Shown here: positions 1 to 47,500 of the stretch, piece by piece
Layout of the letters: the number at the start of each line of letters is the position of its first letter
Numbering within the stretch: the stretch's first letter is position 1
Assembly: GCF_000003855.2 (NCBI RefSeq)
Contig: NW_003101682.1
Location: 1,212,620-1,276,619 of the forward strand
Source: Blastomyces gilchristii SLH14081
Taxonomy: Eukaryota > Ascomycota > Eurotiomycetes > Onygenales > Ajellomycetaceae
Reading direction: 5' to 3'
Length of the DNA stretch: 64,000 nt
Made by a program: the position numbers and the translations under genes
The notes under the pieces: model-generated
Told to the model about the DNA's origin: nothing
The model's input: the letters and a program-made list of their open reading frames with translations, nothing else
Database searches by the model: none

Positions 1-1100
1 AGAGAGAGATATGAAGAAATGCAGAAAGTAGAATATAGTGTGTAAATAACTCATTCTCATGATAATATCTCAGATAAGACATACAAGCCTCACATCTGTA
101 GATGTAAAAGGGTATAACATCTGTATTTCTGTTTTCAAAAACACAGATATCTTTTATCTGTATCATGAAGTCAAACAACAGATATTAGAGAATAGACTGA
201 TATAGATCTATCATTCTGAAGAAATTTATCAGAGTAGATGTCTCTGCAATATTGAACTTTACAGTTGTAAAAAGTTTCTTAATATCTATAAATATTACAA
301 CTTTATACACAATAAAACCTATAATAATTTCTCCTAAGAACAGAAAAATCAGCATCAGAAAGAGAAGATAAAAAAAGAAAGACTTATAATTCTAACACTG
401 TTGAAAAGAAGAGTGATTCTCTGATATAAATGAATAATTATCTTATCATGAATATTTAAAATGAATATAATAATCAGTGTCTGTGACTGAGCTTCAGATA
501 GTCATGTCATACACAGTCTTTATACAATAAATTGTTTTAGAAGTCAGTAAGAAGAGTGAGAGTATATATACTGAGAAATATAATTCATTAAGTCTATACA
601 ATATCTTCTTAAAACAGAAAGAGCTGATAATAAAACCAGAGATGATAGAAGCAGAGAGAGTAGAAGTAGTAGAAGTGAGAGTCACAGAAACAGAGATAGC
701 AGAAGCAGGAGAATCAGACATAGAAGCAGGTGTAGAAGATTAAGAGAGAGTGACAGAGAAAGAAACAGAGAGAGTAGAAGAGAGCATGAGAGATTCAGTC
801 ACATATAATACAGATAATTTCTTCATTATCATATCTCTCAAGTTCTCAATCAATGATTTAACTTGAGAATCATGATCATTAGTGAATACAGATCTGTCAA
901 TATATGAAGATTCTATACAAATCAAAACAAATATATCAGTATCTGCAGCTATGTAAAATAATCAGAAAATATGATCAGAAAACATGATCAGATACTTACT
1001 GAAGAAAAGAGAATCAGAGATATATAAGAAGATGAAGAAGATGTGTCATTTATAATAGTATATTCTGACAATTGTTAGAAGATAAACAAGTTCTGATCAT
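1..1100 (-). pseudogene. Antisense spliced gene of LTR family A, copy A3 (5' two thirds)
   Basis: This is the mutated homologue of the gene at 36802-38391. It runs opposite to the element's own direction, starting with ATG at 1100-1098. Intron 1 spans 999-943 and has a perfect GTAAGT donor and a CAG acceptor. Intron 2 spans 387-334; its donor has decayed to ATAAGT, and its 54-base length is the same as in A2. Exon 2 (942-388) encodes the Ser/Thr-rich part, including the residues SDSPASAISV. Exon 3 enters the Cys-rich segment, where several conserved Cys positions have become Tyr (for example ELFTHYI against ELFTHC in A2), as expected from TGT-to-TAT damage. The gene leaves the window at base 1. 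The two copies together support a real gene rather than a chance frame. Confidence 0.75.
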
Positions 1101-1493
1101 GTTTCATAACATATTACACTTACTGCTAACAAACTGCCTGATATAAGTACTATAAGAATACTTGTTATAGAAACAGAGAGCTATTACTAGAAACACATAT
1201 GATGTGATAGATAAACAACAGATAGAAGATGTTAAATAAAAGAAGAGACAGAAATCTTGAATAAGATGATAATATTCAATGATGACAATGATAAAGAAGA
1301 TAATTGAAGAATGAGAAAAGTTAGTAGATAAGTAATATAATATAGTGAAAGTTTCTTTATGAGAGTGTACATGAGATGCTAACTGAATCAGAAATAGATC
1401 ACATAATTGTGAACACTAGTGACATGCTAATCCGCATGAAGCTAGAATGTATGTCATGATTATATAAGTGTGACTGAATCTGATGAGAGAGAA

Positions 1494-21600: not shown

Positions 21601-22560
21601 AAAAGACATCACTAGATATTCAAACAGTTTTAGTGCAGTTTTAAAGACAGTCTTTCATTCATTTCTAGACTGTATTCACAGCTGTGTATATACATTGATC
21701 ACATTCAGTTGTGTGAATATGACAGCTTCTGTGAGATGATTGATCACATTCTCAATCAGAGATAGAGAATAGCAGCTCTTTATTATCTTGAAGTTCAGGT
21801 CACAGTAGTCTACACACAATCTGAGATCTTCATTCTTCTTCTTCACAAACATCACAGAGACTCTCATGAAGGCCTGTGAAGATTAGATGAAGTCATTCTT
21901 CAGATTCTTCTTCATATAGGTTCACAAGACCTCTGTCTCATAATGAGAGAGCTTATAGATTAGTTCTCAGAAGAGTTTCTGTCCTTCTATCAAATCTATT
22001 GCTAGATTCTTCTCACAGTGAGAAGAAAGCTCAGCTGTCTTAGCTGAGCTGAACATCTCTGTGAGATCTCAGTATTTCTCTGATATCTGAAGCTCAGTTT
22101 CCATAATCATGAGGTTCTCAGACACTTACAAAGTCATTATATAGATAAGCTTGTCTTCTCTAATCAACTCTGCAGCATTAACTGCTTCTATCTTTATAAG
22201 TGAGTCTATCAACACTGATTGAAAGTATAAACCTGACTTATAAACAGCTATGTGCGGATTGTGTCTTTGAAGTCATATAAGTCTTAAATACATATCATCT
22301 GTGATATCTGTGATAATCACAGTTTCTGCAAATTTTCTCCAGATTTCAGAGAGATCTTGCAATTCAAAGATAACTCTCATAAGTCTCTCAGTTCTCAGGT
22401 CTGAGTTCTCACATTCTGCTTATTACAAGAGCAGGTTTCCAGTCTTCACCTTTCAGCTCATTCACTTCATAAGCTTTAGAAACATCACAGTGACCTGAGA
22501 TCCTGAGTTCATCAATGCTTCTTATACTTATAAGACAGCAGCATCACAGTGCAGTCTCTT
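18660..22560 (-). pseudogene. pol: Gypsy B2 pol (protease, RT, RNase H, integrase, chromodomain)
   Basis: Read from 22560 down. RT is at 21870-21330, with LRLCVDYCDLNFKI and then LFEYLVMSFDLT-like sequence. The RNase H segment is at 21264-20956. Integrase is at ~19960-19500 and includes VLMIVNHFIKMTHFI, NIVSDRESIF and the TAFHQQTD motif. The C-terminal chromodomain region runs to about 18800. Stops at Trp and Gln codons break the frame throughout. Domain order defines a Ty3/Gypsy chromovirus; the enzyme is inactive in this copy. Confidence 0.85.
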
Positions 22561-22599
22561 TCTGTGAGTAAGTATTTTCATTGAGAGAGTAACAGATTC

Positions 22600-23765
22600 A
22601 GGTATCAGCTTCAAGATTCTTAAGAAGACTGTTGCTAACTCTGTTCACAACTTCTCAAATTCCTATTTTAATTTATCTGAACAGTTTGCATGAAGATGTT
22701 CTGATTTAGAACAGATGAAGCAGAGTTTCTTTTCCTTGATCTCTCTGTTATACACTCTATTTGTAAGAGCTTGTGAAGCTCTCTCTTTCTGCTCAGCAGT
22801 CAGACATGAATCTCTCTGTGTCTTATTATCTTTTTCTGACAAACCTGTTCTCTGTTATTCTGATCCTTGCAGAGCCAGTCAATAATTCACTCTCTGCAGA
22901 TCTGTGACTCTTACAGTAATCTGTAAGTGATGAATGAGAGTCATCAGTTTCTTCAGAGTCAAGAGCTTAGAGTCTTGCTTAATAAGCTTGTTCTACATAT
23001 CTTTATTCAGTCTCTTTGCAAACATCATTATTCAGGTCTTGTTTCAGAACCCTGTTTTCACAGGTCTCAATTCATGCCACAATTTCATAAAGTACTGTGA
23101 GTAGTCTTCATCAGATTTCTCATCTCTTTTTCTAATATTGATGATTATGGTTCAGATGTTCTCTGTCTGACTTGCAGAGTCTCTCAACTTGTTCTCTAGA
23201 TAGATCTTAAGAACAGATTATCAGAATCTCTCATGATCATTCTCTAGATAATTCAGTCAGTTCTTGACTTCAGTGTAATAGAGGTCTGTCATCACATAGG
23301 TGACAGCTTCTTCATCTTTCATGTCACACAGCCGGGCTTGTGAGTCAATTTCAAATACAAACTTGCAAAAGCTTTTATAGATTGTGATTTAATAGATGGC
23401 CTTAAGTGATCATAGCTTGAGAAAGTTTCTTTTCAGTTTGCAGGTGTTTCTGAAGATCATGTCTAGAGACTCAGTTCAAGAGTGTTTACAGATAGTAAGC
23501 ATTTCTTGTAAAAAAATAGCTTAATCTCATAGAAGATGCTCAAGAATGTTCTTCACTGAGATTGATTCATTTATGAGTTTGAAGAGTTTCTCTGTCACAG
23601 ATGCAGAGAATGATGTTCTGTGAGTAATTGATAAGTTCTCTGAGACTTCTTTCATGAGGATTATTCATGATTCAGGTGACTGCTTCTGAGTGTCTGCAGT
23701 AGAGTTTGCAGGGATTGAAGCATGTGAGTTTCTAGTTCTTTCAGTCATAACAGGTGATTACTGAC
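22600..23765 (-). pseudogene. gag: Gypsy B2 gag with CCHC zinc knuckle
   Basis: The frame starts at an ATG near 23750 (peptide beginning MTERTRNS), just inside the 5' LTR. It reads a capsid-like region with Trp codons mutated to TGA, and then the knuckle CFICSKSEHLHANC at ~22725-22682 (C-x2-C-x4-H-x4-C, with the usual Gly before His changed to Glu). Protease sequence follows. Length is about 380 codons, normal for a fungal Gypsy Gag. Confidence 0.75.
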
Positions 23766-23780
23766 TGACTGAGCTTGAAA

Positions 23781-24037
23781 TGTAAGAATAAGTGCTCACA
23801 GGTGATTATTCAGGTGTTTGCAGCTTGATGTGATATGTACTGTTAACTACTAGAAGTGTTCACAGTAGAAAGATAAATGTAGAGATCAAATGTATAATAG
23901 CATTCAAGCTGAGTTATAAATAGTATTCATGAACTCCAGTCTATATAGTTGTGTGTAGCCAAGGGCCGCTAGCCCTATTGATTACATGAGAGATAGGAAT
24001 AGAGGTAAAGAATCCGCGAGGAGCGGGATTTCTTACA
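23781..24037 (-). repeat. 5' LTR of Gypsy B2
   Basis: 257 bp with TGTAAGAA...TTCTTACA ends. The end near 24010-24030 keeps undamaged CG sites (aatccgcgaggagcggg), also seen in the B1 LTR at 28449. No tRNA-type primer site beginning TGG is seen next to it; the adjacent interior reads ttcaagctcagtcagtcag. Confidence 0.9.
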
Positions 24038-27571: not shown

Positions 27572-27681
27572 TGTGATTCAAAGGTTGCTTGAGCCAGCGT
27601 ACGATTACAGGCGTACACCAGCTTCTTATATATTGTAATATCGTACGCTAAATTAATTAGTGGCTGCTATGACCCTCTTTA

Positions 27682-28053
27682 GCCCCGGTGGCCGAATGGT
27701 TAATGCGGCCACCCGGTAGCGCCTTGGCGTGGGAAACCAAGGCGTGTGGGTTCGAAACCCGCAGGGGATACATTAAATCCGGAACCCAAGCACCTCAGGT
27801 TCCTAATAAATACAGAGGTGTACAAATCGCTGCAATAAATCGCTCTATGTTCCTGGGCTGGGAAGTTATTATTGCATGTATCTAATTGTCACTTCTTTGT
27901 ATTTCCTATGTTCTTGTTATCTTGGCGTGGTCTCAACACCTGTATTTCCTCCTGTATAACCAACACTTGACCTGTATTTAACATCACGCAAGGACTCATC
28001 ATAAGCTCCGCTTGCATATGAGTATAATGAAAGAATAATAATAATAATAATAA
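27682..28053 (+). mobile_element. tRNA-derived SINE, nearly unmutated, with (AAT)n tail
   Basis: About 372 bp inserted in the A2 LTR with a 14-bp duplication, tatgaccctcttta (27668-27681) and tatgactctcttta (28054-28067), differing by one C-to-T. The head is tRNA-like, with a Pol III A box tggccgaatgg (27689-27699), a B box ggttcgaaacc (27749-27759) and a hairpin gccttgg/ccaaggc between them. Acceptor pairing is imperfect, so it is not a functional tRNA gene. The body has no ORF, and the tail is (aat)n at 28034-28053. A 65-codon frame from 27688 crosses the tRNA-like head and is not a gene. It keeps many CG and CC dinucleotides. Confidence 0.85.
27689..27759 (+). promoter_or_regulatory. Internal Pol III promoter (A and B boxes) of the SINE
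   Basis: A box at 27689-27699 and B box at 27749-27759, each fitting the tRNA-gene consensus. The D-arm-like segment and the T-arm (gtggg...cccgc) can still pair. A head of Ser/Leu type is suggested by the long hairpin between the boxes, but the isotype is not certain. Confidence 0.75.
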
Positions 28054-28133
28054 TATGACTCTCTTTACACTTGTAAGCAAGTTCAGAAGTAGCTGTGTTA
28101 TTATTCAACAGTTGTATATTCTTCTGAATCATA

Positions 28134-28448
28134 TTCTCTCTTATCAGATTTGATCACACTCATGTGACTATAACATTCACTCTAGCTTCATGCAGATTAG
28201 CACATCACTAGTGTTTATAATCTTGTAATCTATTTCTGATTCAGCTAGTATTCTGTGTACACTCTTACAAAGAAACTTTCACTATATTACATCTCTCATT
28301 CACTAACTTTTCTCATTCTTCAATCATCTTCTTCATCATTATTAAACATTATTATCATTCAAGATTTCTATCTCTTCTTCTGTTCAACTCTTTCTATCTG
28401 TCTGTCTATCATATTATACGCGTTTCTGGCAATGACTCTCTGTTTTCA
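28134..28448 (-). mobile_element. A2 interior between the antisense gene and 3' LTR
   Basis: Collinear in inverted orientation with 1170-1493 of A3; no reading frame is shared. It ends in ttctctcttatcag next to the LTR, purine-rich on the minus strand, a possible polypurine tract. The last five bases (tttca, 28444-28448) are the target duplicated by B1. This is where a promoter for the antisense gene would have to lie. Confidence 0.75.
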
Positions 28449-28706
28449 TGTAAGAAATCCCGCTCCTCGCGAATTCTTTACCTCTATTTCTATCTCTCAC
28501 ATAACTAATAGAGTTAACAGCCCTTGGCTACACATAACTATATAGACTGGAGTTTGTGAATACTATTCATAACTCAGCTTAAATGCTATTATACATTTAA
28601 TCTCTATATTTTATTCTTCTACTGTGAATACTTCTAGTAGTTAACAGTATATATTATATCAAGCTGTAAACACCTGAATAATCATCTGTAAGCACTTATT
28701 CTTACA
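28449..28706 (+). repeat. 5' LTR of Gypsy B1
   Basis: 258 bp; its first 30 bases keep CG sites (cccgctcctcgcg) while the rest is AT-shifted. The partner at 36472-36729 shows the reverse, with CG kept near its end (aatcgcctgcgagc). The following interior reads tttcaagctcagtcagtcag, the same as in B2. Confidence 0.9.
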
Positions 28707-28739
28707 TTTCAAGCTCAGTCAGTCAGCAATCACTCATTA

Positions 28740-30400
28740 TAACTGAAAGAACTAGAAACTTACATACTTCAATCTCTGTGAACCTGACTGCAGACACTCA
28801 GAAGCAGTCATCTGAATCATAAATAACTCTTATAAAAGAAGTCTCAGAGAACTTATTAATTACTCACAGAACATTATTTTCTATATCTGTGATAGAAGAA
28901 CTCTCTGAACTTATAAATGAACTAATCTCAGTGAAGAACATTTTTGAGCATTTTCTATAAAATCAAGCTATTTTTCTATAAGAAATGCTTACTGTCTGTA
29001 AACACTCTTAAACTGAGTCTCTAGACATAATTTTCAGAGATATCTACAAACTGAAAAGAAACTTTCTTAAGCTGTGATTACTTAAAATCACTTATTAAAT
29101 CACAATCTATAAAAGCTTTTACAAGTTTGTATTTGAAATCAACTCACAAGCTCAGCTATGTAATATAAAAGATAAAGAAGCTGTTATCTATATAATAACA
29201 GATCTCTATTACACTGAAGTCAAGAACTGACTGAATTATCTAGAGAATGATCACAAGAGATCTTACTAATCTATTCTCAAGATCTATCTAAAGAATAAGT
29301 TAAGAGACTCTGTGAGCTGAACAGAGAATATCTGAATTATAATCATTAATATTAGAAAAAGAGATAAGAAATCTGATAAAGACTACTCACAGCACTTCAT
29401 AAAATTATGATGTGAATTGAGATCTGTGAAAACAGAGCTCTGAAACAAGACCTGAATAATGATATTTATAAAGAGACTGAATAAAAATATGCAGAATAAG
29501 CTCATTGAGTAAGACTCTAAGTTCTTAACTCTGAAGAAACTGATAACTCTCATTCACTGCTTACAGATCACTGTGAGAGTCACAGATCTGTGAAGAGTGA
29601 ATCACTTACTAATCTCACAAGAGTCAGAACAACAGAGAACAGGTTTGTCAGAAAAAGATAATAAGATATAGAGAGATTCATATCTGACTACTGAGCAGAG
29701 AGAAAGAGCTTCACAAGCTTCTGTAAATAGAGTGTATAATGAAGAGACTAAGAAAAAGAGACTCTACTTTATCTGTTCTAAATTAGAACATCTTTATATA
29801 AACTGTTCAGATAAATTAAAATAAGAATTTAAGAAGTTATAGACAGAGTTAGCAACAGTCTTCTTAAGAGTCTTAAAGCTGACATCTAGACTGGCCGCCG
29901 GGACCATGAATTTCACATTTGATTCCATTTGGTCTGGTCTCATACATTTCTTGGCGTGAATCCCGCTGGGACTGGCTATCAAAAAAACATGTAAAGTGAC
30001 TATATATCAGATCTTAAAATGGAACTATGACTTGAAAAAAATGAGAAAGTGGTCTCATTTGGTCCCATTTAGTCCCATTCTTGGCATAAAGTTACTATTT
30101 TTAGACATTTTAAGGTTTCTTTTAGACTATTTTTAATTTTTTAAAAAGTAACGCTTTTTGGTAACACTCAAATGAGATTTAAAGTCATTTAAAGCAATAA
30201 AAATAATTTAAATTGAGAAGTGGAAATCATGATCTTATTTGGAAAATGTGACAAGAGTAGACAGTAAGTTTCACTGGAACAGTATGAGACTACTATCTAA
30301 TGTTAAAACTGTGTAATGAAATCAGTCAAATTGGTAATGAGACTATCAAAAAATCTGGTCCTGGTCTCAGACACGGTCACACGGTCAGTCTACTGACATC
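28740..30400 (+). pseudogene. gag: Gypsy B1 gag with zinc knuckle, interrupted by MITE-2
   Basis: Collinear with the gag of B2. A capsid-like region with TGA at Trp positions is followed by the knuckle at 29765-29806 (first Cys now Tyr, then FICSKLEHLYINC). MITE-2 is inserted 80 bases downstream (29887-30392), so the end of gag and the start of protease are split. The initiator Met codon is lost (ata instead of atg) near 28745. Confidence 0.75.
29887..30392 (-). mobile_element. MITE-2 (hAT-derived), inverted orientation
   Basis: 506 bp, beginning tagactggccgccggg and ending cggtcagtcta on the plus strand, with a perfect 8-bp duplication, ctgacatc (29879-29886 and 30393-30400). No ORF is present. 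It is ~90 percent alike, by eye, to MITE-3 and MITE-4, with differences almost all transitions. Confidence 0.93.
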
Positions 30401-33400
30401 TGAATCTGTTACTTCTCTGATGAAAATACTTGCTTACAGAAAGAGACTGTACTGTGATACTGCTGCTCTGTAAGTATGAAAAGCATTGATGAACTCAGAA
30501 TCTCAGATCACTGTAGTGTCTCTAAAGCTTACAGAGTAAATGAGCTGAATGATGAAAACTGAGAATCTGCTCTTATAATAAGCAGAATATGAGAACTCAG
30601 ACCTGAGAACTGAGAGACTTCTAAGAGTCATCTTTGAATTACAAGATCTCTCTGAAATCTGAAGAAGATTTACAGAAACTGTGATTATCACAGACATTAC
30701 AGATAATATGTACTTAAGACTTGTATGACTTCAAAGACACAATCTGCACATAGCTGTTCACAAGTCAGGTTTATACTTTCAATCAGTGTTGATAGACTTA
30801 CTCACAGAGATAGAATCAGTTAATACTGCAGAGTTAATTAGAGAAGACAAGCTCATTTATATAATAACTTTGTAAATGTCTGAGAATCTTATAATCATGA
30901 AAACTGAGCTTCAGATATCAGAGAAATACTGAGATCTTACAGAGATATTCAGCTCAGTAAAGACAGCTGAGCTTTCTTCTCACTATGAGAAGAATCTGAT
31001 AATAGATTTGATAGAAGAACAGAAACTCTTCTAAGAATCAATCTATAAGCTCTCTCATCATGAGACAGAGGTCTTGTGAGTCTATATAAAGAAGAATCTG
31101 AAGAATGACTTTATTCAATCTTCACAGATCTTTATAAAAGTCTCTGTGATATTTATAAAGAAGAAGAATGAAGATCTCAGATTGTGTGTAGACTATTATA
31201 ATCTGAACTTTAAGATAATAAAGAGCTGCTATTCTCTGTCTCTGATTGAAAATGTAATCAATTATTTCACAGAAGCTATTATATTCATATAACTGAATAT
31301 AATCAATATATATACACAGCTGTGAATACAGTCTGAGAATGAATAAAAGACTGGCTTTAGAACTGCATTGAGATTGTTTGAATATCTAGTAATGTCTTTT
31401 AATCTGACTAATATCTCTGCAGCATTTCAGTCTTTTATTAATAAAACACTTCATATATATCTAAATATCTTCATGATAATATATCTGAATAATATAATAA
31501 TATACTTCATAAAGAAGAAAGAACACACTGAGAATGTACAAAGTGTGTTGAAGATCTTAGATGAGACAGAACTGTATGTTAAGCTTATAAAGTATAACTT
31601 CAGTATCTATCAGATTAATTTTCTAGAATATGTAATTACTGCAGATAATATTCAGATAAAATCTTCATAAATTAAGACTATTCTATTATAATCAGAGTTA
31701 TCTAGTATTTATGAGATTCAGATCTTTCTGAGCTTTGTGAATTTCTATAGATGATTTATCTTTGTGTTCACAAGAATCTTCTTGACTCTTACAGATATAC
31801 TGAAGAGTGAAAATAAGAAGAAGTTATCTCATAAACAGAGAATGAAAAGATTATTAAGAAGAGAGAGCTGTGAGAACTTTCTTATCTCAGAAGCTTGTGA
31901 GATCTTTATAAGATTGAAACAGATATTCACAGATACAGTGATACTGTTTCACTTTGATTTCTTACTCTTAATTAGATTGAAGACAGATATCTTCTTCTTT
32001 ATAATTTCAGAAATAGTCTCATAACTACAGTCAAATGAAAACTGAGTTTCAGTAGTCTTTTTCTCATAAAAGATATAACTTATAAAGATCAACTATAATA
32101 TTCATAATCAGAAGCTTCTTATAATAGTGAAATTCTTTCATCACTGATATCACTACTTTGAGAATCTTACAACAGTGATTACTGTTAGAACTGATTATAA
32201 CAGCTTATAATAGTTTATTTTAATCAAGAAACTCTCACAGCAGCAGATTCACTGAGCTCAGAGACTGAGTGAGTTCTGATTCAAGATAGAATATATCAAG
32301 AGAACTAAGAACTCAGCAGACAGACTCTCTCACAGATCAAACTATGTTAAGAAGATCAGAATGACAGATATAGAGAGACTAGAGAAGGCAGAAAAGCTTT
32401 ATAAGATGCTTAAGCTGAGTGTTATAAAGAGATTGACTGAAGAGTCTCTCAATCCCTTATAAGAGAAGAGAGAGAAGAGAGAAAAGAAGTCTGTATAATT
32501 ACTCTCTATAACACTGAGAGTCAACACTCTGAGAATCTTTATGAGAATTCTTGAAGAGAGTATCTATAATCTGAAGAATTTACAGACTTTGAGAAGTGTT
32601 GTGAAAGACCTGATATAAGAGAAAACAGATCATAAGTCTTTATAAGATCTTCTATTCAGATTGTCTGAACTGCAACTGAAGAATGAATATACTTAGTATA
32701 TTCAGAAACTGCTCACAGCAGAGATCAATTCTGCAGAAATAAAGAATTAAAGAGACTTAAATAATCTCTTGTGAAGAGAGAGTCAGATTTATGTACCTGT
32801 GAATGAGTTTCTGTATATAGAACTCATTAAAAGGTATTATAACTCTTCTCTAGCAGATCATTTTATAGACACTAGAACTTATAAGTTGCTTATAAGAAAA
32901 TACTTCTGACTGAAGATATGAGAACTTGTGAAGAAGATAGTAAATTCTTATACTATTTATCAGAATTTATGAGTAGTACAGTTCAGATTATATGAAGAAC
33001 TTACTTCTCTACTCATCTTACAGAAACCTTGAAAACAGCTAGAAATGAATACTCTTATAAGTCTCTCTGAAAGTAAGAATATATATAATATCTGCTTTGA
33101 CAGTGTACTAGTAATAGTGAATTACTTTATTAAGATGACACACTTTATACTCATCTGCAAGAACTTGAAGTTAAAGAATTTAACTCATATCTTTATTTAT
33201 AATATAATCTGATTGTATAAGTTATCTGTGAATATTATCTCAGATAGAGAATCAATCTTTACAGAAGAGTTCTGATTTGATCTGATAACTATACTGAAGA
33301 TCTCATAAGATCTAAGTACAGCTTTTCATCAACAGACAGATAATCAGACAGAATACCTGATAAGTATATTAAAACAGTATCTGCAGTACTTTATCAATTA

Positions 33401-34100
33401 CAATTAGAATAACTAAGTACATTAATTATTACTTACAGAGTTTATATATAATAACTTAAAGCATGTCAGTACAGATAAAACCCTCTTTGAGATACTCACT
33501 GAAACTCATTCATGAATAATCTTGATAAATCTGCAAGAGTACACTATAGAGTGTGATAATGTCTGTGAATAGACTGAGAGAATTCAGGAGATTCAGAAGA
33601 AAGTCTGCAAATTCTTGAGAAAGACTCAAGAGTATTAGAAGAGATACTATGACTCTAAGCATATTATAAAGAGTTTTAAGAAAGATAATAGAGTCTGACT
33701 GAGTCTAGAAAATATTATTATATAAAGATCTAGTAAGAAGCTGAATCTCTTACAGACAGAGTCTTACAAGATTATGAAGAAAGTTAGCTTGTAGTTCTAT
33801 AGATTGAAACTGTTATCTGAGTTACAGATGTATAATATTTTTCATGTCTCTCTGCTCTGTGAATATAAGAAATTCTCAGAAGAGAATTCTGTGACTTATC
33901 ACTCTATCTATAAAGTACTAGAGAGTGAAAGAGAATATCAGATCAAAGAAATTGTTGACTCAGAGAAGCAAGATTATGAGCTCTGATTCAAGATTTAGTG
34001 ATAAGAGTATTCTGATAAGATGAATGAGTTTACTTAAGAATTATCTGAGCAGATAAGACATCTGTAGAAGCTGAGATATGACTTTCATATTATAAATTCT
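30401..34100 (+). pseudogene. pol: Gypsy B1 pol (protease, RT, RNase H, integrase, chromodomain)
   Basis: Protease lies near 30430-30500. RT is at 31150-31680 with LRLCVDYYNLN, FEYLVMSFNLTNISAAFQ and YLNNIIIYF (the YLDD active site with both Asp changed to Asn). RNase H is at ~31900-32260. Integrase is at 33080-33620, including VIVNYFIKMTHFI, NIISDRESIF and TAFHQQTDNQTEYL. After a basic linker, FHVSLL (33840) leads to a chromodomain at ~33910-34090 that includes YQIKEIVDSEKQDYEL and MNEFTWE-like sequence (Trp read as stop or altered). Order and chromodomain identify a chromovirus. Dozens of TGA, TAA and TAG codons inactivate it. Confidence 0.9.
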
Positions 34101-34409
34101 GACAAGTCAGAATAACATAATCTTCACTAAGAATCTGATTATAACAAAGATATTAACACTATCATTTATAAGCTCTAGTCTATAAGATAATGAGTTTCTA
34201 CTGAGATGAACAGTCTGCAGTGTATATAAAGAGAAGAAGAAATTATACTCTCATTAAAGTTAAAAAATAAGAAAACAAAAACAGGGCTGTGAACATAATT
34301 TAGAGACTAATAAAGAAAAAATAAAGAAAATTCATATTCATATTCTTAATATCTGTAACACTCAATCTTCTCATAACTATTAATTTTTCTCTTCAAAGAA
34401 GCAGAGAGT

Positions 34410-36200
34410 ATCATGTCTGCAGTACAGATAATTATTGTATTTGATATGAAGACTGTCAGAAATGTACAGACTTCAGAGAAGCTGAACACCAGAATATGCA
34501 TAGTTGTAGCAGAGTCTTGAAAGCTGACTATCTATACATATGATCAGATATCTCTCACAAAGCTGTATCTACTTTCTCAGTTGTACTGAAGTATTCAGCT
34601 CAGAAACAATTGAGATGTGAAGAGAGAGCTCATCTATTCAGATTAACTCTCATCACAAATTCATAATATTCACATTACCTTGATTATCTGAATTTTACAG
34701 GTATCTGAAGACTCATCTCTCATTGATAATGAGATTGCAGAAATGCGCCGCGGTGTAAGAATCATTGATAGAGAACCTAGACATATTTACATATATCTGA
34801 TCAGAGATTGTGCAGGCAGAGAGAGAGTGATTATAGTAGACTGACCGTGTGACCGTGTCTGGGACCAGGACCAGATTTTTTGATAGTTTCATTACCAATT
34901 CGACTGATCCCATTACACGGTTTTAACATTAGATAGTAGTTCCATACTGTCTCAGTGAGACTTACTGTCTACTCTTGTCACATTTCCAAATGAGACCATG
35001 ATTTCCACTTCTCAATTTAAATTTACTTTTATTTGCTTTAAATGACTTTAAATCTCATTTGAGTGTTACCAAAAAGCATTACTTTTTAAAAAATTAAAAA
35101 TAGTCTAAAAAAAACCCTTAAATTGTCTAAAAATAGTACCTTTATGCCAAGAATGGGACTAAATGAGACCAAATGAGACCACTTTCTCATTTTTTTCAAG
35201 TCATGGTTTCATTTTAAGATCTGATATATAGTCACTTTACATGTTTTTTTAATAGCCAGTCCCAGCGGGATTCACGCTAAGAAATGTATGAGATCAGATC
35301 AAATGGGACTAAACATGAAATTCATGGTCCCGGCGGCCAGTCTAGATCATAGGCCTGCAGAACTGCAGAAGACACTGATAAAATCAGAAGCTTTATAAGA
35401 ACTGTCAGCTAGAATCTGTAAGAAATTACTTATAAGAAGACTTACAGCAAAGAAGAAGACTGCACTGCTTGAAGTCAGAAACTGGCCTGAAAGAGACATG
35501 AAGTTGACTGCTGGCCTGAAGATCAGATGCAGTGACAGGGCTGAGAAGAGTAGAGATACTGTTATGAGCAGTAGCATCTCTGCTTCATTAGCTAGTAAAA
35601 AGTAATCAGAGAAGTCACAGAGATACTCATAAGAAGCTCAGTAGCAGTCAGATATTATTTACAAGATATTGAAATTGAAAATTTTTTATTCTTGAGAAGT
35701 TCTTGAATCAATATATGAATATTGTCAGAAACACTCTCTCTCTGTTATCTGAATGAAAATACTTTGTGAATGAATGAAAATACTCACAGTTTATAAGAAT
35801 AAGAGCTGTTATAGAAAAAGAGAAAAGAAGATGAGATTTCACAGACAGATCTGAGATATTTATACTACTCTAGAGAGATTTGCTTACACTGTGAGTGATT
35901 CTATAAAACAGTCAGATCACTCTAGTAAATAAAGAGTGATTATAAATTACAGATCTGAATCTTTCTATATAACTATAAAGAGTGATTATAGACTGCAGAC
36001 ATCTTGATTCTACAATTCTACAGAGTTAATAAAAGAATGAAAAATTTCTCACAATTCTACAGTGTCAAAGAACAATGATTCATAAGAATGAGTGAAAGAT
36101 CAACTTATAAATACTTCTCTTTAATGAGAGTGATCTCATAGAGAGTGATTCATCTGTGAGATGAATCTATGTGATGATTACACAAGAATCTTATAAAAAT
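34410..36200 (+). pseudogene. Third open region of Gypsy B, copy B1, interrupted by MITE-3
   Basis: From ATG 34414 a frame reads MSAVQIIIVFDMKTVRNVQT and continues to ~34690 with only TGA/TAA damage. A second frame (34700-34830) reads DNEIAEM and LIRDCAGRERVII. After MITE-3 the charged, probably coiled-coil stretch of the B2 copy continues at 35345-35790. This is about 1.3 kb of sense-strand coding potential beyond the chromodomain. The frames are not continuous; introns, frameshifts or separate ORFs are possible. I recognise no domain. Confidence 0.4.
34837..35344 (+). mobile_element. MITE-3 (hAT-derived)
   Basis: 508 bp from tagactgaccg to ggccagtcta, with 8-bp duplication gattatag/gatcatag (34829-34836 and 35345-35352; one C-to-T). 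The empty site is visible in B2 (reverse complement of about 18160-18175: agtgatcataggctcac). It keeps more CC and GG than the surrounding B1. Confidence 0.93.
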
Positions 36201-36471
36201 AATTAAGAGTTAACTGAAACTCTTCTGTATAGAAGATATGAGATAAATCTGTATAATAGTCAGAGAAGAATCTGTAGATTACAAAGAATCTCATAGAATA
36301 AGAAACTAAGTGACAGACTCTTTTCTCTTCACAGTAATAAGAGATTTTTCCTCACTGAGATTTTTTATAGATATAAAGAATTTTTAGTGAGTATTACTGC
36401 AGTGCTGAGCTGATTCTATAGAGTTACTCAGTGAAAGACTTCACAGATGAAGTCTTAGAGAGGAGAAGATA

Positions 36472-36729
36472 TGTAAGAAATCCTGCTTCTTATGAATTCT
36501 TTATCTCTATTTCTATCTCTCATGTAATCAATAGAGTTAGCAGCCCTTGACTACACACAACTATATAGACTGGAGTTCATGAATACTATTCATAACTCAG
36601 CTTAAATGCTATTATACATTTAATCTCTATATTTTATTCTTCTATCACAAATACTTCTAGTAGTTAACAGTACATATCACACCAAGCTGCAAACACCTGA
36701 ATAATCGCCTGCGAGCACTTATTCTTACA
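36472..36729 (+). repeat. 3' LTR of Gypsy B1
   Basis: 258 bp, preceded by the purine run agaggagaagat (36460-36471), a good polypurine tract. It differs from the 5' LTR by transitions. The target duplicate tttca follows at 36730-36734. Confidence 0.9.
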
Positions 36730-36801
36730 TTTCACAACAAGTGTCATTGTAGTACTCATACTGAGCAGTTTGTTAGCAGTAAGTGTAATGTGTTGTGAAA
36801 C

Positions 36802-38391
36802 ATGGCCAGGACTTATTTATCTTCTAATGATTGTCAGAATGTATTATTATAAATGACACATCTTCTTCACCTTCTCATATATTCTTGACTGTTTTTCTTC
36901 TCAGCAGGTTTCTGATTGTGTTTTCTGACATGATTTTATATGAATGCAGATGCTGATATGTTTGTTTTTAATTATATAGAATCTTCACATGTTGACAGAT
37001 TCATGTCTGCTGATAATAGTGAACTCAATGTTAAATCATTGATTAAGAACTTGAAGAATGTGATAATAAAGGAATTGTCTGTATCATGTATAATCAGGTC
37101 TTCTATGTTCTCTTCTGCCTCTTCTGTCACTTCTTTCCCTGCTGCTCTCTCTCAATCTTCTACACTTGTCTCTGTGTCTGATTCTCCCGCTTCTGCTACT
37201 TCTGTTCCTATGATTCTCACTTCTGCTACTTCTGCTCCCTCTGGTTTTACCATCTCTGCTTTTATTATCAGCTCTTCCTGTTTCAAGGAGATATTGTGTA
37301 GACTTAATAAATCATGTTTGTCAGTGTGTACACTTCTGCCTTTCTTACTGACTTCTAGAATGATTTATTGTATAAAGACTGCATATAACATGACTATCTG
37401 AAGCTCAGTCACAGACACTGATTATTATATTCATTTTAAATATTCATGATGAGATAATTATTCATTCATATCAGAGAATTATCTCTCTCTTCAACAGTGT
37501 TAAGATTGTAAGTCTTTTTCTTTTCATCTTTTCTTTCTAACACTGATTTTTCTGTTCTTAGAGAAAATTATTATAGATTTTACTGTATACAAAGTCATAA
37601 TATTCACAGATATCAAGAAACTTTTCACAACTGTTAAATTCAATATTATAAGTATATCTGCTCTGATGAATATCTTCAGAATGATTGATCTGTATCAGTC
37701 TATTCTTTGACATTTGTTATCTGACTTCATAATGCAGGTGAAGAATATCTGTGTTTTCAGAAATGAAAACACAGATATCATACTCTTTTACATCTGTGAG
37801 TGTGAGGCTTATACACCTTGTCTGAGATATTATTGTAAGAATGAGCTATTCACACACTGCATTTTACTTTCTGTATTTCTCTGTGTTCTTCTCTCTCTTT
37901 CTAAGAAGCCTTGTGTGTGTTGTAATTGCATGTATAATTCTAAGACTAGTGAGTGTTTATTCAGTAATTATTACTTCTGCTTTTGCAGTTTCATACATTA
38001 ACAATAGTTCTTAGTTACTCTGACATTAGAGATCATTTTAATTGAAGATGATAATGCTGCTGAGACTACTCTCTTTCACTCTTATACTTCTCTTATTACT
38101 TTCTCTTTCTTCTCTGCAGAGAAGATTATGCACACACTGAGTTATAAGTATTCAGCTTCAGATAACTTTCACTGTCATTCATTCAGTTCTGTATCTTCTT
38201 CTTTCATTTCTTCTGCCTCTGCTCTCTCTGCTCTGGCTTCTGATTCTGCAGGTTCTGTACTCTTCTTCAATTTCTCTACATATATATGTACACATTTCTA
38301 TATTAGCATTTCAGTCAATCTTGTAATAAATGACATTAATGTTATACACAGAGCAGTAGAGAAATCAGAGACATGCACAGCATTATTATAA
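36802..38391 (+). pseudogene. Antisense spliced gene of LTR family A with Cys-rich segment (copy A2)
   Basis: It runs opposite to A2 gag-pol, between pol and the 3' LTR. Exon 1 is 36802-36907, starting ATGGCCAGG. Intron 1 is 36908-36949, its donor partly deleted here; the A3 copy has GTAAGT. Exon 2 is 36950-37507 and includes a Ser/Thr-rich stretch (SDSPASATSVP). Intron 2 is 37508-37561, with GTAAGT, CTAAC and TTAG. Exon 3 (37562-38391) stays in one frame for ~275 codons, broken only by TGA, TAA and TAG of the Trp/Gln type. Around 37795-37965 it reads YTPCLRYYCKNELFTHC and, further on, CCNCMYNSKTSECLF. The Cys spacing and the NC-x-YN-S pattern resemble what I recall as the fungal domain DUF3716; this is not checked. 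About 500 codons in all. No role can be named. Confidence 0.75.
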
Positions 38392-38761
38392 GAGTGACTT
38401 ACAGCTCTTGAATCTCTTACAGATCTCAAGTTTTGAGATTTTCTTTATTTTTAATGTTTTTCAGATGATGTGATGTTGAAAATAGATTAAACATGTGATG
38501 TATGAAAATGAATAAGATGTGTATGATAACATTTATCTTTTACAGCTGATTCTTACAGTTGATAATCAATTCATTATCTCTTTTCTTTTCTTATGCTTTT
38601 TCTTTATCTGCTAGTCACTACTCTTACACAATCTCTATATAATACAGTGTTCAGTGACTAGATTTGACAGCTTTCATCTTTTGTAATTCTGTCTTATGTA
38701 TTATACTGTCTCTCTTCACCTGCTCAGATCACTATAGTGAATAACTCATTAAAACTAACCT

Positions 38762-38804: not shown

Positions 38805-41800
38805 TCATACATTCACAGATGTTTCAGATGCTTCATCCTCTGTTGTCTCTGCAATTAAACTGGTGTAAATAGTTGAATTCAACTCTGAATTTCTTTTTCT
38901 TCTGTGATCTGACTCATGTGCAAGTCTGTCACTTTGAGACTGCTCTTTACTGTGTTGCACCTGCTGTCTACAGTGCATTATTATATGATTAGCTACAGTC
39001 TCATTACTTATTGAAGTGTGATATTTATCTGATTTCTTCATTTCTTCTCATTCTTTTCTTATAATTGTGAAAAGATTGAAATAAGTGAGATCATCTGATT
39101 TGTAAGTATCTATGATTTCTCTTACTTTATAAGACTTTTCAATTGTAAGCTTCTTCTTCTTCAATACTGATAAGAGTGCTGTAGATAATTATAATTCACT
39201 TAAGTCTTACATCTTTGCTTTCATAAGTCATGAATCATTTATTAAGTTGTATAAGACCTGTCTCTCTGATTCTTTCAATGTGTATATTCTCAGAGAATGT
39301 GATTTGAGTATTTTATATGACTCAAATCATCTAGATTGAAACTTCTCAGGGCTCTCATTGTGTATAAGAACTCACATTCTCATCTTGAGACTTGATTTCT
39401 TAACTAGTGAGTCTTGTATTCTTTTCAATTGAATTGCTCAGTTCAGAAGTAACTTGTTAGCTTTTACACATGCATAACTGATCTCTTTCAATCTTGATTC
39501 TATGTCTGTGACTGTTGCATCTGCAACTGTTACTGCTGTGTTCATAACTGCTGTTTCTGCTATGTCTGTGACTGTTGTGTCTGTGACTGTTGCATCTGCA
39601 ACTGCTATTCTCTCTTCCTTCTTTTCTGAAGCATTCTCTAGAATGCACGGATGCAATTCATACAACAGGTAGAATGATGAATGCTTGAAGACTGCATACT
39701 GTTGAATCCGTGTGGTCAATAGTGCCTGTCTGAGATATTCATCTCATAGTCTTATAGACTTGTTCACTAGATATTTCATCAGCATGTTACTCAAGATTTC
39801 ATTCAAGTGTTTCATCTTTCTATTTATTCATAGATGATATGATGTTATTCTATAATATCTTGTCTGTAACTGGTCTATGAAATGCCTCACTACTTCTCTC
39901 ATGAGATTCACACTGTTATCAGTTAGAATCTCATGCAGTATTCCATAGTTGATATAGATCTTATCATATAGAAACTTTACTATCATCTTCTCTGTCATCT
40001 CTGAAACTGCTTTCACAACTGGTCAGTCAGTAGTGTAATCAATAGCAGTGATTATTCATTGATTTTCATTTAATATTTGTGACAATATATCTATGAGATT
40101 CATTTCTCATTGTTTGAATAATTGTATTGTACACTTCATCTGATATTGCACTTTCTTACATTCTAATTCTTTCTTAGATTCTTTCACAACCTGATAATTC
40201 AGGCACTTGTGAGTGTATATCTGAATGTTCTCAGTCATACTTGGCCAGTATGCTCTTGATTCAAGTATATTCATGAGTTCAGAGCTTTCTAAGTAGCTGA
40301 ATTCCTTGTACATGCAAGTCATTAAGTTATGTCTAAATGAAGATTCTAGATAGGGAGCTTTCACATATTCTAGATCACAGTAAAGCATAATATTGTTTTT
40401 CAATTTCCTCAGCTTGAAGTTCAGAAGCATCTCTTCTACTACTCTCATGAGATACTTATCATCTGACATCTTATTATTCTTCAAGTAAGAGATCATAGCA
40501 TTTACTTATTCTGATTCCTTGTACTCTCTCAGTGCATTTAACATGAACTTTCCTTGTATCTGGTTTACAGAATTCTCATTCATGAAATCAGATCTGTAAC
40601 TGATTGCATCAGACATCACAGTATCTGATCTCTTTCAGTATTTAATATAAAGATTATACACTTGAAACTTCAAGATTCAATGTACTAAGTGTTTGAAAGA
40701 TTTTATCATTGATTGTAGATAGATGAGACTTTCATAATCTATGATCACTGTTATCATATATCTGTTGTTGATATATCTATCTCATAATATCAGTGTGTGC
40801 TTGCTCACTAGTAATTTCTTTTCATACACTGAGTAATTAAGCTCAGTGCCTGATAGTTTCCTATCATTGTATATCACTGAGTGCAGCTTGCTGTTCTTGC
40901 TCATCTATAGAAGAGTGTCTTCAATAGCTTATTTAAATGCATCTGTCTCAATATAGAAAGATTTATCATGATCTGATTGAATAAGCACTGAGAATGTTAT
41001 TACATGTTCTCTCAGTGTGAGAAAAGCCTCTTCACACACAGCATTTCAGATGATTGAATGAAACTTCTTCTTTTGTAGATTTACATTCATTTCTCTTAAG
41101 AGATCTGAGAGTGATGCAGATATTCATGCAAAATCCTTGATGAATCTGTGATAATATGAGATCAACTTAAGAAACTGTTGTATATAATGTATGTTTCTCA
41201 GCTGTGATCAATTCACTATAACATTCAATTTCTTCAGAATGAGATGTATACAGTCATCACTCACTATATATTCTACAAACTTCAACTCTTTCATTTCAAA
41301 CACACACTTGATTGATTTGATATAGAGCTTATACTCTGTCAGAGTTATAAGTACTTCATCAAGATGCTTCAGATATTCATTGTATAAGTTTGAAAAGACT
41401 AGAATGTCATTGAGATATATGAGATATGAGATTTCATTCTGTTTATGAAGAATTGTATTCATCATCATTTAAAAGATAATGAGTGCATTTATCAGACTGA
41501 ATGACATTGTCAGGAATTCAAACTTCTCTCATTGTATATTAAACACAGTTTGTGAGACTGACAGTTTATCTATACAGATCTGTCAGTATTCTGAGAGAAG
41601 ATCAATCTTCAATAGATATTAAGTATTTTCAACTATATTCAACTGTTATTGAATTCATGATAATGAATATTCATTCTTGATTATAAGCTTGTTAAGTGCT
41701 TGATAATTGATACATATCTGTCACTTCTCATCTGCCTTTTTCATGAATAGAACTGGAAAGCCTCATGTGCTTGATGAGAATTGTATGAGATCATGTTCTA

Positions 41801-44362: not shown

Positions 44363-44538
44363 TGTAATTCAAAGGTTGCTTGAGTCAGTGTATAATTACA
44401 GATGTACACTGGCTTCTTATATATTGTAATATTGTACACTAAATTAATTAGTGACTGCTATGGCCCTCTTTACACTCGTAAGCAAGTTCAGAAGCGGCCG
44501 TGTTATTATTCAACAGTTGTACGTTCTTCCGAACCACA
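44363..44538 (-). repeat. 5' LTR of A2
   Basis: 176 bp; the minus strand starts TGTGGTTCGGAAG and ends TTGAATTACA. It keeps CG at its outer end (gaagcggccgtg, ttccgaacc). On the minus strand it is followed within 2-3 bases by tgatagcatgtct, the primer-site-like motif also found after the C LTR. The 4-bp target duplicate tctc follows on the right at 44539. Confidence 0.9.
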
Positions 44539-47500
44539 TCTCACTTACATAATATTATAACATAGTGCTCATTTGTTAAAAATTCAATAGAGAGTGTTAC
44601 TAAATATTATTACTTTTCTGAATACAGATTATAATTCATATGATTTTAATTATAAAAAAAATATAAAATACAAAAAAAAAACAAAAAACAAAAAATAAAA
44701 CAAAAACAAGAAAAAATCAGAATGAAAAAAAAAAAAAAATAAAAAAGAGAAAGAAAAGAAAAAGAAAAGAAAAATAAAAAAATAAAAAATAAAAACAAAA
44801 AAAATCAAGATCACACAACTGCAGTATTCTTAAAATACTCACTTCTCAGAGTCTTTGCAATGTTTATTATTAACTGTGTATCTCTTACAGTAAGAGTAAT
44901 ATAACTGTAATAAGTTATTATCTTAACATTATCTAATAAATAATCTGTATATATCTGTATAAATGTGAATATTTAGAAAGCATATACTCAAAAAGTATAA
45001 TCAGAGTGAACTCTGCTATCACTTGAATAATATCAAGAACAGAATGCTGAAATTGATGATTTTTCTCATCAATTTCATGAGTAAGATGTGTGAAGATGAT
45101 TTTAAGAAATATAAGATTTTCTAACTGCTGGTAAAAATAAATCTCACAGAGAGATTCTATTTTCATAATATCAGAGACTGAGTATTATCAAAAAGTGTTA
45201 CTTTTATGCAATGTATATACACTTACTGCAATAATTCACTCTCTACATATGTGACTGAGAATTGCAGCTTTCTCATGCTGCATGACTCTCTCTGAGATGC
45301 TGACACTGGTTTGCAACTCACACAGTCTCTCAGTTCAGCATGTACTGTGTGTATACAGCTCTGTATACTGAGACTATGTTGATCATTATAACCTGGCATG
45401 ATACTTGCTTTTCACAGGTCATGTTTTGTTTGAGAGAGAGAGAGAGAGATGTGACTGTGATTTTATTAAAGAGAAATAAATAATTAGTAATATTAGATAT
45501 AATTTGATTCTTCTGTATTTAAAATTTAATTAGTCTATACTCTTCAATTTGAGAATTTCTAAGAGTGTTTTAATAGTTTTCATACCAGCTTGAACTTAGT
45601 GATGAGTTAAAGAAGAAGAGAAAAGAGAGAAGAAAGAAATGAGAATAACTTATCTTTATAATATAAAAACAGAGAATTGCTGCAATCATTCTTTCTAGTA
45701 ATAAAGATCTGTTTTCTGCATGTATCTCTGATATAGATTATATGATAACTGTATACAAAGAATATCAACACTGCATATATTAAATGAAGATGATGTTACT
45801 ATGCAATACTGTAGCTGTTTTTATATATCTCTGAAAGCTGTTAATATTTTCTTTATCTCTTTATATTTGATAAGTCAGTAATATATTTCAATGCACTCTC
45901 TCTTTTATCATCATTATCATCATTATTATTATTATTATTATTATATCATTTCTGACTGTCTCTTCTGTCTTTATCTCTCTTCAACACTCACTGAAATCAA
46001 TTATATCATCTCTCTTCAAATATTCTGCGGTTCTGTGAACTATCAAGACTCGTGAGCAATGTCACAGATTGAAGAAAGAGAAGAAGAAGATGTTTAAGTG
46101 AGAAGAGATAGATTGTAAGACATGTTATAATATCTTAAAGAGACTCTGTAAGAGAGTAGAATAATAACAATTTTAAGTAACACTTCTGATAGATTTAGAC
46201 TGAACTAAGTATAGAAATAATGCAGATAACATCATCTGTAAGAGATTAAAGAAGAAGACAGTGAAAAGTCTCATGCAGTAGCAGTGAGACTAGAAGAAGT
46301 TCTGAGAATAATTTAAGTTTAAGATGAAGAGAGAAAGAGAGAAGAAGAGTGTTACTATAAATAAGTAATAATAGAAGAAGATTGAGAAGATATTAAAGTA
46401 GAAGATAAAGAAGTTAAAACTGATAAGTTTTTTATTTATTGAGAGATAATGATTTTTGATAATACTTCTATTCTCTAATTGATTAGCAGAAGCTGACAGA
46501 GAAGAAGAAAATTAAGACCTTGTTCAGGTCTCAAATGCACTTCATGATTCAGAATATTGAGAAGACAGCTCTGCTCTCTGAGCATACTAATCTACTTATC
46601 ACTGAGATGAAATCTGAGACAGCAGATCAGAAAATGTGAGATTTTAAGATACAGATTAATCTGGCTAAGAGAAAGCAGTGAGAACTCTTCTCTGAGAAGA
46701 TAGTGAAGAGAGATTTTGAGATGATTATCATCTCAGATGAGAAGAAGAAGAAGAAGAAGAAGAATAAGAAGTGAATTATAAAGAATAATAAGAAGAATGA
46801 GAAAGAGAAGAAGTAGAAAAAGTTTTTTTCTTTTTATATTAGTTAGTTATAAGTTCATAATTATTAATAATTAAAATTGATTTTAAGTTTTCAAAAATTA
46901 TTGTACAAGTTGTAATCAAGTCAGGAATAATATATATATATATATATATTTAACTATCATGATTTACAAATCACTATAATATATAAGTATCAACATTTTT
47001 TTAACATTGATATTTATAATATTAATATATTTTTAATAATATTATCTAATAATATAATTTAATAACACTCTCTTTCACAATATTAATATTTTTCAAGAAA
47101 TATGATAGAGATTAATTAAGATTGTTTATTTACTTTTATATATTGATGATATTCAATCTGAGTTAGTACTAAAATTATAACTAAGCTAAGAAACAAGATT
47201 ATTTTCTCTTATATTAATTCTTCTTACACACATCAGTGATCAGTTATTGAAAATAAATTATTATCTTTCTTAAATTATTATTATATCTTCTGAATTCACT
47301 TCTTTCACTTCTTTTACTTCTATTGAAGATTCATAAACTCTTCAAGAAATCACTGTGAATTATAAAGTCTATATTATTTATAATTCAACACAGAATACTC
47401 TCTTTCAATTATAATAAATAATAACTTCATTCTTCACATCTGATTTCAGATTATAAAATTTATAAAAAACTCAACACAAATATTGAGATGAACTATGAAA

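What the first reader, a model, noticed from the sequence alone, without database searches (positions are those of the whole stretch)
36802..38391. A spliced gene on the opposite strand, carried between pol and the 3' LTR of a fungal Gypsy element
Two independent copies of family A (A2, and A3 at 1-1100) carry the same gene in the same place and in the same antisense orientation, with continuous homology from the gene through to the 3' LTR. It therefore belongs to the element and is not a chance insertion. Seen directly: two introns at equal positions (intron 2 is 54 bases in both; GTAAGT, CTAAC and TAG in A2; intron 1 has GTAAGT in A3); a ~275-codon third exon in a single frame; and a Cys pattern P-C-x3-YC...F-x2-C...C-x-C-C-x-C-x-YN-S-x4-C. 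From memory, this resembles the DUF3716 domain of many ascomycete hypothetical proteins. Antisense ORFs at this position are known in some plant Gypsy elements (Grande1, Retand); I do not know of a fungal case with introns.
Basis: partly seen in the sequence, partly recalled or inferred. Interest (0 to 1): 0.82.

Follow-up and report, generated by a model that had tools for sequence, protein, structure and literature searches.

The report
Antisense spliced gene in fungal retrotransposon
Many copies of a jumping element in the fungus Blastomyces carry, written backwards beside the element's own genes, an extra gene with introns that resembles an ordinary gene of the same fungi, which suggests that the element took up a relative of a host gene and kept it working while it spread.

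Summary
The finding is real, with corrections. A protein match places the window in Blastomyces gilchristii SLH14081. Family A is a Ty3/Gypsy element damaged by RIP-like C-to-T mutation. In this copy another LTR element (28449-36729, duplication TTTCA) splits exon 1. Of 40 copies picked by pol alone I checked 34; 33 carry the gene in the same place and orientation. Coding is shown by exon lengths that change by multiples of three (42/43, 42/42, 38/39 rows) while intron lengths drift, by excess synonymous transversions, and by few stops in the gene's frame. Other copies reach Pfam DUF3716; the window's own copy does not. The C-terminal half of the protein is homologous to a host protein returned once from each of six other Ajellomycetaceae. 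A captured relative of that gene, keeping its introns because it is antisense, is the likeliest origin. Antisense genes at this place are known (plant Grande, Retand; fungal Boty brtn). DUF3716, the introns and the host paralogue appear new. The function, probably a nuclear zinc-binding accessory protein, is inferred.

The parts
28432..28448 (+). Exon 1, first part, from the ATG; interrupted by an inserted LTR element
   Evidence: Sequence and TTTCA duplication; start and exon1/exon2 junction agree with the annotated proteins P0001 and P0002
28449..36729 (.). Inserted LTR element (family B) inside exon 1; not part of the gene
   Evidence: LTRs of about 263 bases at both ends, 5-bp duplication TTTCA at 28444-28448 and 36730-36734
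36735..36778 (+). Exon 1, second part
   Evidence: Phase-1 junction agrees with P0001 and P0002
36779..36979 (+). Intron 1 (GTAAGT...TAG, 201 bases)
   Evidence: Donor GT in 42 of 43 rows, acceptor AG in 42 of 43; length differs from the window by a multiple of 3 in only 21 of 42 rows. 3' boundary chosen after seeing the indels; P0003 is annotated with an extra small exon inside it
36980..37507 (+). Exon 2
   Evidence: Length differs from the window by a multiple of 3 in 42 of 43 rows
37508..37561 (+). Intron 2 (54 bases)
   Evidence: 53-57 bases in 17 further copies
37562..37963 (+). Exon 3, with the DUF3716 region at about 37780-37959
   Evidence: 402 bases in 42 of 42 rows; DUF3716 HMM in the corresponding pieces of other copies
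37964..38014 (+).
   Evidence: Branch-like CTAAC and TTCTTAG end; 51, 52 or 55 bases in 42 rows, and 51 or 55 in 19 further copies
38015..38436 (+). Exon 4, linker and helical tail; shared stop TGA 38434-38436; this copy has an earlier stop at 38389-38391
   Evidence: Length differs by a multiple of 3 in 38 of 39 rows; tail homologous to the host protein
40110..40505 (-). Integrase zinc-binding piece of pol
   Evidence: PF17921, 25.3 bits, 0.2 under its cut-off
41211..41468 (-). Reverse transcriptase piece of pol
   Evidence: PF00078, 30.8 bits, over its cut-off
44363..44547 (-). 5' LTR of the element (element reads on the - strand)
   Evidence: Direct repeat of 27572-27681 (88.2%) and 28054-28143 (85.6%)
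27572..28143 (-). 3' LTR, interrupted by a foreign insert at about 27682-28053
15..1166 (-). Second copy (A3) of the gene's 5' half, cut by the window edge
   Evidence: 80.6% identical to 37880-36736

Best explanation
This is an accessory gene of a Gypsy retrotransposon, set antisense to pol between pol and the 3' LTR. SHOWN by sequence: a shared place and orientation in the copies examined; exon/intron structure; coding constraint before the damage; DUF3716; homology of its C-terminal half to a host protein. INFERRED: the element captured a relative of that host gene as genomic DNA. Its introns survived copying through RNA because the element's genomic RNA holds them in reverse, where the splice signals are not read. 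It is transcribed from an antisense promoter in or next to the 3' LTR, spliced and translated. The protein (N-terminal region of its own, six-cysteine DUF3716 region, basic stretch, C-terminal helix) is probably a nuclear zinc-binding protein that pairs through its helix and favours the element, most likely by acting on its transcription or silencing.
For: Same place and orientation in 33 of 34 pol-picked copies examined, of 40 (14 by coordinates, one being the window itself; 19 of 20 fetched). Row lengths differ from the window by a multiple of 3 in exons 2-4 in 42/43, 42/42 and 38/39 rows, against introns 21/42, 37/43 and 27/42. Indel events that are multiples of 3: exons 13 of 15, introns 8 of 29, Fisher p 3.1e-4. 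Transversions: 42 synonymous and 90 nonsynonymous, 31.8% against 19.6% expected, p 5.9e-4; alleles in 2 or more rows 17 and 17, p 6.8e-5. Stops per copy in exon 3: 1.14 in the gene frame, 3.5-18.7 in the other five (42 rows). DUF3716. Host homology: profile comparison probability 93.5, E 2.3e-7, 223 columns; C-terminal 50 residues beat all 2000 shuffles in 13 of 15 pairs. The six cysteines invariant in the host proteins align to TE columns that hold only Cys or Tyr in 38 copies.
Against: No transcript, cDNA or protein was seen. The 3' end of intron 1 was set after looking at the indels; with an earlier boundary p was only 0.040. Annotated proteins place some introns elsewhere: P0001 and P0002 skip the second half of DUF3716, P0001 also lacks residues before intron 2, P0003 has an extra small exon. 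Six of nine relatives gave no DUF3716 hit. One antisense frame that shares the third codon position shows the same synonymous excess (p 3.4e-4). Profiles are shallow (Neff 1.4 and 2.1) and partly low-complexity. Structure models were poor (mean pLDDT 40.9 and 44.0), so zinc binding and dimerisation rest on sequence pattern. Nuclear location and benefit to the element were not tested.
Confidence: 0.7

Rival explanations
1. The antisense strand matters as RNA only: an antisense transcript makes double-stranded or small RNA that tunes the element, and the reading frame is incidental.
For: Every one of the 43 rows has at least one in-frame stop in exons 2-4 (1 to 12). Antisense regulation by TE-derived transcripts is proposed for plant LTR elements (PMC7264820, passages) and for a RIP-less fungus (PMC10648671, seen in a search listing only).
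Against: Exon lengths keep the frame while intron lengths drift, synonymous excess, DUF3716 and a host paralogue: all show a protein selected before the damage.
Confidence: 0.12
2. Pure passenger: a captured gene fragment that spread because the element spread, with no benefit to the element.
For: The element's function for the protein is unknown; captured cargo occurs in retroelements (general knowledge).
Against: Alleles shared by 2 or more copies are half synonymous (17 of 34 against 19.6% expected, p 6.8e-5) and exon indels shared by 3 or more copies are all multiples of 3 (8 of 8), so the protein was held under constraint while the family spread.
Confidence: 0.15
3. Reverse direction: the host DUF3716 gene of Ajellomycetaceae is a domesticated copy of the element's gene.
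For: Homology alone does not give a direction.
Against: The host protein was returned from six species of three genera, including ones for which no relative of the element protein was returned, and its gene here lies in DNA with normal GC (0.49) and CpG (0.94).
Confidence: 0.12

Closest known systems
brtn, antisense gene of Boty-like Gypsy elements, Botrytis cinerea (Zhao et al. 2011, seen only through citations in PMC7264820, PMC8365987, PMC4227169, PMC5987419)
   Same: Fungal Gypsy element with an extra antisense gene; PMC7264820 lists it with elements carrying antisense ORFs between pol and 3' LTR
   Different: Different class of fungi (recalled).
Antisense ORFs of plant Gypsy elements: Grande gene23, RIRE2, Retand TRP28 (PMC7264820, PMC11963269; passages)
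   Same: [quoted passage not shown] the Grande product is nuclear and transcribed from its own promoter
   Different: Retand ORFs carry Transposase 28 (PF04195), not found in the nine proteins scanned here. 'intron' does not occur in either paper's main text. PMC7264820 says no clear similarity to other proteins is known for such products; here a host paralogue exists
Host DUF3716 protein of Ajellomycetaceae (P0010-P0015; gene in L048)
   Same: DUF3716 region, charged and basic linker, C-terminal helix, collinear over about 220 columns
   Different: In normal-GC DNA, not beside pol; lacks the element protein's exon 1-2 region (about 190 residues)
HTLV-1 HBZ antisense gene (named in PMC11963269 and PMC7264820 passages)
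   Same: Antisense accessory gene of a retroelement giving a nuclear regulatory protein
   Different: Analogy of arrangement only; no sequence relation claimed or tested

Membership tests
Antisense additional ORF between pol and 3' LTR (aORF-3R) | Lies between pol and the 3' LTR | tested here: met
   Window. In 39 fetched gene-picked copies the LTR piece lies beside the gene in 38 and the pol-side DNA in 39
Antisense additional ORF between pol and 3' LTR (aORF-3R) | Antisense to pol | tested here: met
   pol pieces on -, gene on +; same relative orientation in 33 of 34 pol-picked copies examined of 40
Antisense additional ORF between pol and 3' LTR (aORF-3R) | Present in most copies of the family | tested here: met
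   33 of 34 examined; 6 of the 40 listed were not examined; only 40 of 858 candidates were scored
Antisense additional ORF between pol and 3' LTR (aORF-3R) | Transcribed, own promoter | not testable with these tools
   No RNA data at hand
DUF3716 (PF12511) | Scores over the Pfam gathering cut-off (22 bits) | tested here: met
   Other copies: L049 34.3, L021 34.6, L051 23.0; annotated P0001 23.0, P0002 30.3; P0004 20.8 and six others not. The window's own piece: no hit
Ty3/Gypsy | RT before integrase, between LTRs | tested here: met
   RT 41211-41468 then integrase zinc-binding 40110-40505 on the - strand (the latter 0.2 bits under cut-off), LTRs at both ends
Boty brtn | Sequence relation to BRTN | not testable with these tools
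   BRTN was not among the hits; its sequence is not held
Retand TRP28 ORFs | Transposase 28 domain (PF04195) | tested here: not met
   No such hit in nine proteins at E up to 1
Env-like gene | Sense orientation relative to pol | tested here: not met
   Gene is antisense

The most novel reading that the evidence does not exclude
The host DUF3716 protein belongs to the fungus's own chromatin or genome-defence machinery, and the element carries a captured, diverged version that competes with it, a counter-defence gene kept intact, introns included, by its antisense position. Nothing seen here excludes this, and nothing shows it.
Probability: 0.12. Interest if true: 0.88.

Novelty: new variant of a known kind. 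Interest (0 to 1): 0.57.

Why it matters
The origin of antisense accessory genes in LTR retrotransposons is described as unknown in PMC7264820 (passage). Here such a gene has a recognisable host relative and introns, which fits capture as genomic DNA, and introns that survive retrotransposition because they are antisense. It gives an unstudied fungal domain a setting in which its role can be asked. It also matters for annotation: copies of the element gene sit in the databases as ordinary hypothetical proteins, with splice sites that cut the domain in two.

Tried and rejected
Tried without result: Pfam on the window's own gene pieces (only hits under cut-off); Rfam and tRNA scans of the window (0 and 0); NCBIfam on P0001 and P0002 (0); solved structures with P0002 (one hit at E 0.31); a search for relatives of the DUF3716 part beyond Blastomyces (5 proteins at E up to 10, all Blastomyces, among 196 candidates); structure models of the host protein and of exon 3 (mean pLDDT 40.9 and 44.0). 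Only a C-terminal helix of the host protein (residues 279-311) was fairly confident, so I ran no fold search.

The one exception among 20 fetched pol-picked copies, L063, holds a reversed piece of the gene, probably a neighbouring inverted copy. I did not resolve it.

In the out-of-sample check, 18 of 19 rows have a 402-base exon 3 and one has 456. One of the 19 rows holds a masked run; I did not check whether it is the same row.

Full report
What the window is. The window is C1:1212620-1276619 of a 74.8 Mb assembly. A protein search with the reading of a less damaged copy (L049, on a contig of 3,179,325 bases) returned BDBG_17024 of Blastomyces gilchristii SLH14081 on a contig of the same length, 96% identical, so the genome is almost certainly that strain. 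The region is a nest of retroelements. CpG is at 0.02 and CpC at 0.29 of expectation in the gene. Against L049, the other rows of the alignment have T for C (either strand) at 62% of CpC, 59% of CpG, 41% of CpA and 11% of CpT sites; transversions are 0.6%. This is RIP-like damage.

Element anatomy. Family A reads on the - strand: 5' LTR 44363-44547, RT at 41211-41468, integrase zinc-binding piece at 40110-40505 (0.2 bits under its cut-off), and a 3' LTR at 27572-27681 plus 28054-28143, broken by a foreign insert. A second LTR element, 28449-36729, sits between, with TTTCA duplicated on both sides. The gene lies on the + strand and ends facing the end of pol.

Is the gene part of the element? 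The first search used the gene itself, so its 39 further copies (fetched) are biased; in them the LTR piece lies beside the gene in 38 of 39 and the pol-side DNA in 39 of 39. For an unbiased test I searched with pol alone: 40 of 858 candidates were scored and listed, while the gene search had 851 first-look candidates. Fourteen of the 40 (one is the window itself) have the gene or its DUF3716 at the right distance and strand among the places. Twenty more were fetched at the expected place without foreknowledge: 19 have the gene in the expected orientation, one (L063) has a reversed piece. Six were not examined. So 33 of 34.

Gene model. Exon 1 28432-28448 plus 36735-36778; intron 1 36779-36979; exon 2 36980-37507; intron 2 37508-37561; exon 3 37562-37963; intron 3 37964-38014; exon 4 to the stop at 38434-38436. 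All three introns interrupt codons after the first base. Over 43 rows (window A2 and A3, 39 copies, L049, L051; short rows left out segment by segment) the length differs from the window by a multiple of 3 in 42/43 (exon 2, ten different lengths), 42/42 (exon 3) and 38/39 (exon 4), against 21/42, 37/43 and 27/42 in introns 1-3. Intron 3 is 51, 52 or 55 bases, so without splicing the 52- and 55-base copies would change frame. In 19 further copies not used to build the model, exon 3 is 402 bases in 18 and 456 in one, intron 3 is 51 in 9 and 55 in 10, and intron 2 (17 rows spanning it) is 53-57. Acceptors are AG in 42, 41 and 38 of 43 rows; donors are GT in 42, 23 and 32, otherwise mostly AT (19 and 10 at introns 2 and 3), as G-to-A damage would give. 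The 3' end of intron 1 was placed after seeing the indels: with a boundary at 36904 the exon/intron contrast of indel events was 15 of 24 against 6 of 20 (p 0.040); with 36979 it is 13 of 15 against 8 of 29 (p 3.1e-4). The later boundary and the start agree with the annotated P0001 and P0002. P0003 has an extra small exon inside intron 1, and P0001 and P0002 are annotated with a longer intron 3 that removes half of DUF3716. I prefer the shorter intron 3 because the HMM matches the region through profile position 57 or 58 of 59 in the unspliced frame, but cDNA is needed.

Coding constraint. In exon 3 the gene frame has 1.14 stops per copy; the other five frames have 3.52 to 18.69 (42 rows). Eighteen of 450 codon positions carry a stop in at least one row, and each of the 18 has a sense codon in another row; at 14 of the 18 a sense codon seen in other rows is CAA, CAG or TGG. 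Transversions, which the damage does not make, are synonymous in 42 of 132 cases (expected share 0.196, p 5.9e-4), and 17 of 34 when the allele is in two or more rows (p 6.8e-5). Four of the five other frames show nothing; the fifth, antisense, shares its third positions with the gene frame and shows the same excess. The strand is therefore decided by stops, introns and the domain, not by this test.

Domain and relatives. DUF3716 (PF12511) was found at 150 listed places in this genome (150 of 189 candidates scored), 77 over the cut-off on their own by my count, and in none of 14 control genomes; seven of the 150 lie inside copies listed. By piece: L049 34.3, L021 34.6, L051 23.0 bits; the window's own piece none. 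The protein search returned nine relatives at E up to 1e-3, one from B. gilchristii and eight from B. dermatitidis; of these P0001 (23.0) and P0002 (30.3) pass the DUF3716 cut-off, P0004 (20.8) does not, six have no hit. P0002, BDCG_06430 of ER-3, is 463 residues.

Host paralogue. The best DUF3716 place (C1:270009, L048, GC 0.49, CpG 0.94 of expectation) is an ordinary-looking gene. Its open frame returned six proteins, one each from Blastomyces silverae, B. percursus, B. parvus, Emergomyces africanus, Emmonsia crescens and Emergomyces pasteurianus. The element proteins and these six align over 223 columns (probability 93.5, E 2.3e-7; shallow profiles, partly low-complexity). BLASTP of P0002 with P0010 gives 14 of 36 identical in the domain, E 7e-5 for that comparison. 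The last 50 residues beat all 2000 shuffles in 13 of 15 pairs (one of 2000 and 18 of 2000 in the other two), and all 2000 heptad-keeping shuffles in four of four pairs. The six cysteines invariant in the host proteins line up with columns that hold only Cys or Tyr, the product of one G-to-A change, in the 38 of 41 copies that could be read there.

How it most likely works. Shown: an element-borne, spliced, antisense gene for a conserved protein. Inferred: the antisense position lets introns pass through the RNA stage, since the genomic RNA carries them reversed. The gene must then be transcribed from its own promoter near the 3' LTR, as described for Grande gene23 (PMC7264820, passage). The cysteine pattern, basic stretches and C-terminal helix suggest a nuclear, zinc-binding, self-pairing protein. 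I put the anatomy with a captured relative of the host gene at about 0.7, and the specific nuclear regulatory role at about 0.3.

What is in print. Of the Blastomyces papers I read passages of PMC4595289, and passages, abstract and sections 21-22 of PMC11540331. Both describe the Gypsy expansion; 'antisense' occurs in neither main text. Fungal antisense gene: brtn in Boty, seen only as cited. Plant cases: PMC7264820 and PMC11963269, passages. A search for DUF3716 found 0 papers in the held library. The library holds open-licence papers only, so absence there is weak.

Verdict. A new variant of a known kind. The kind, an antisense accessory gene between pol and 3' LTR, is known in plants and in one fungal group. 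New here, as far as these searches reach: the domain, the three retained introns with evidence of constraint, and a recognisable host paralogue.

Noticed in passing
window:28449-36729: A second LTR element is inserted into exon 1 of the antisense gene with a perfect 5-bp target duplication (TTTCA); another copy of that family lies at about 16792-24037.
   Followed up: partly
window:36736-38391 and 42 other rows: RIP-like damage prefers CpC and CpG (62% and 59%) over CpA (41%) and CpT (11%), unlike the CpA preference of classic RIP (recalled).
   Followed up: partly
family A copies, genome-wide: Copies differ by 15-20% overall but by a median of only 0.9% in transversions (861 pairs). Ages from raw LTR divergence (PMC11540331 section 22: median 45 MYA in SLH14081) may be inflated by the damage. 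I did not date LTRs.
   Followed up: no
L050 (C7:2211400-2213400) and L052 (C13:768600-770700): Other damaged DUF3716 genes with a basic or charged C-terminal region that are not beside family A pol by blastn: perhaps dispersed host-family copies.
   Followed up: partly
P0001-P0009: Element genes are annotated in databases as hypothetical proteins, with splice sites that remove half of DUF3716 in P0001 and P0002 and an extra small exon in P0003.
   Followed up: partly
window:27682-28053: A repeat of about 370 bases is inserted in the 3' LTR; it is 92-95% identical to pieces near copies L009, L034 and L046. Possibly a short interspersed element; ARAGORN found no tRNA in the window.
   Followed up: no
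C3:81440-82140 (L063): The one pol-picked copy without the gene in place holds a reversed gene piece, probably a head-to-head neighbour.
   Followed up: no
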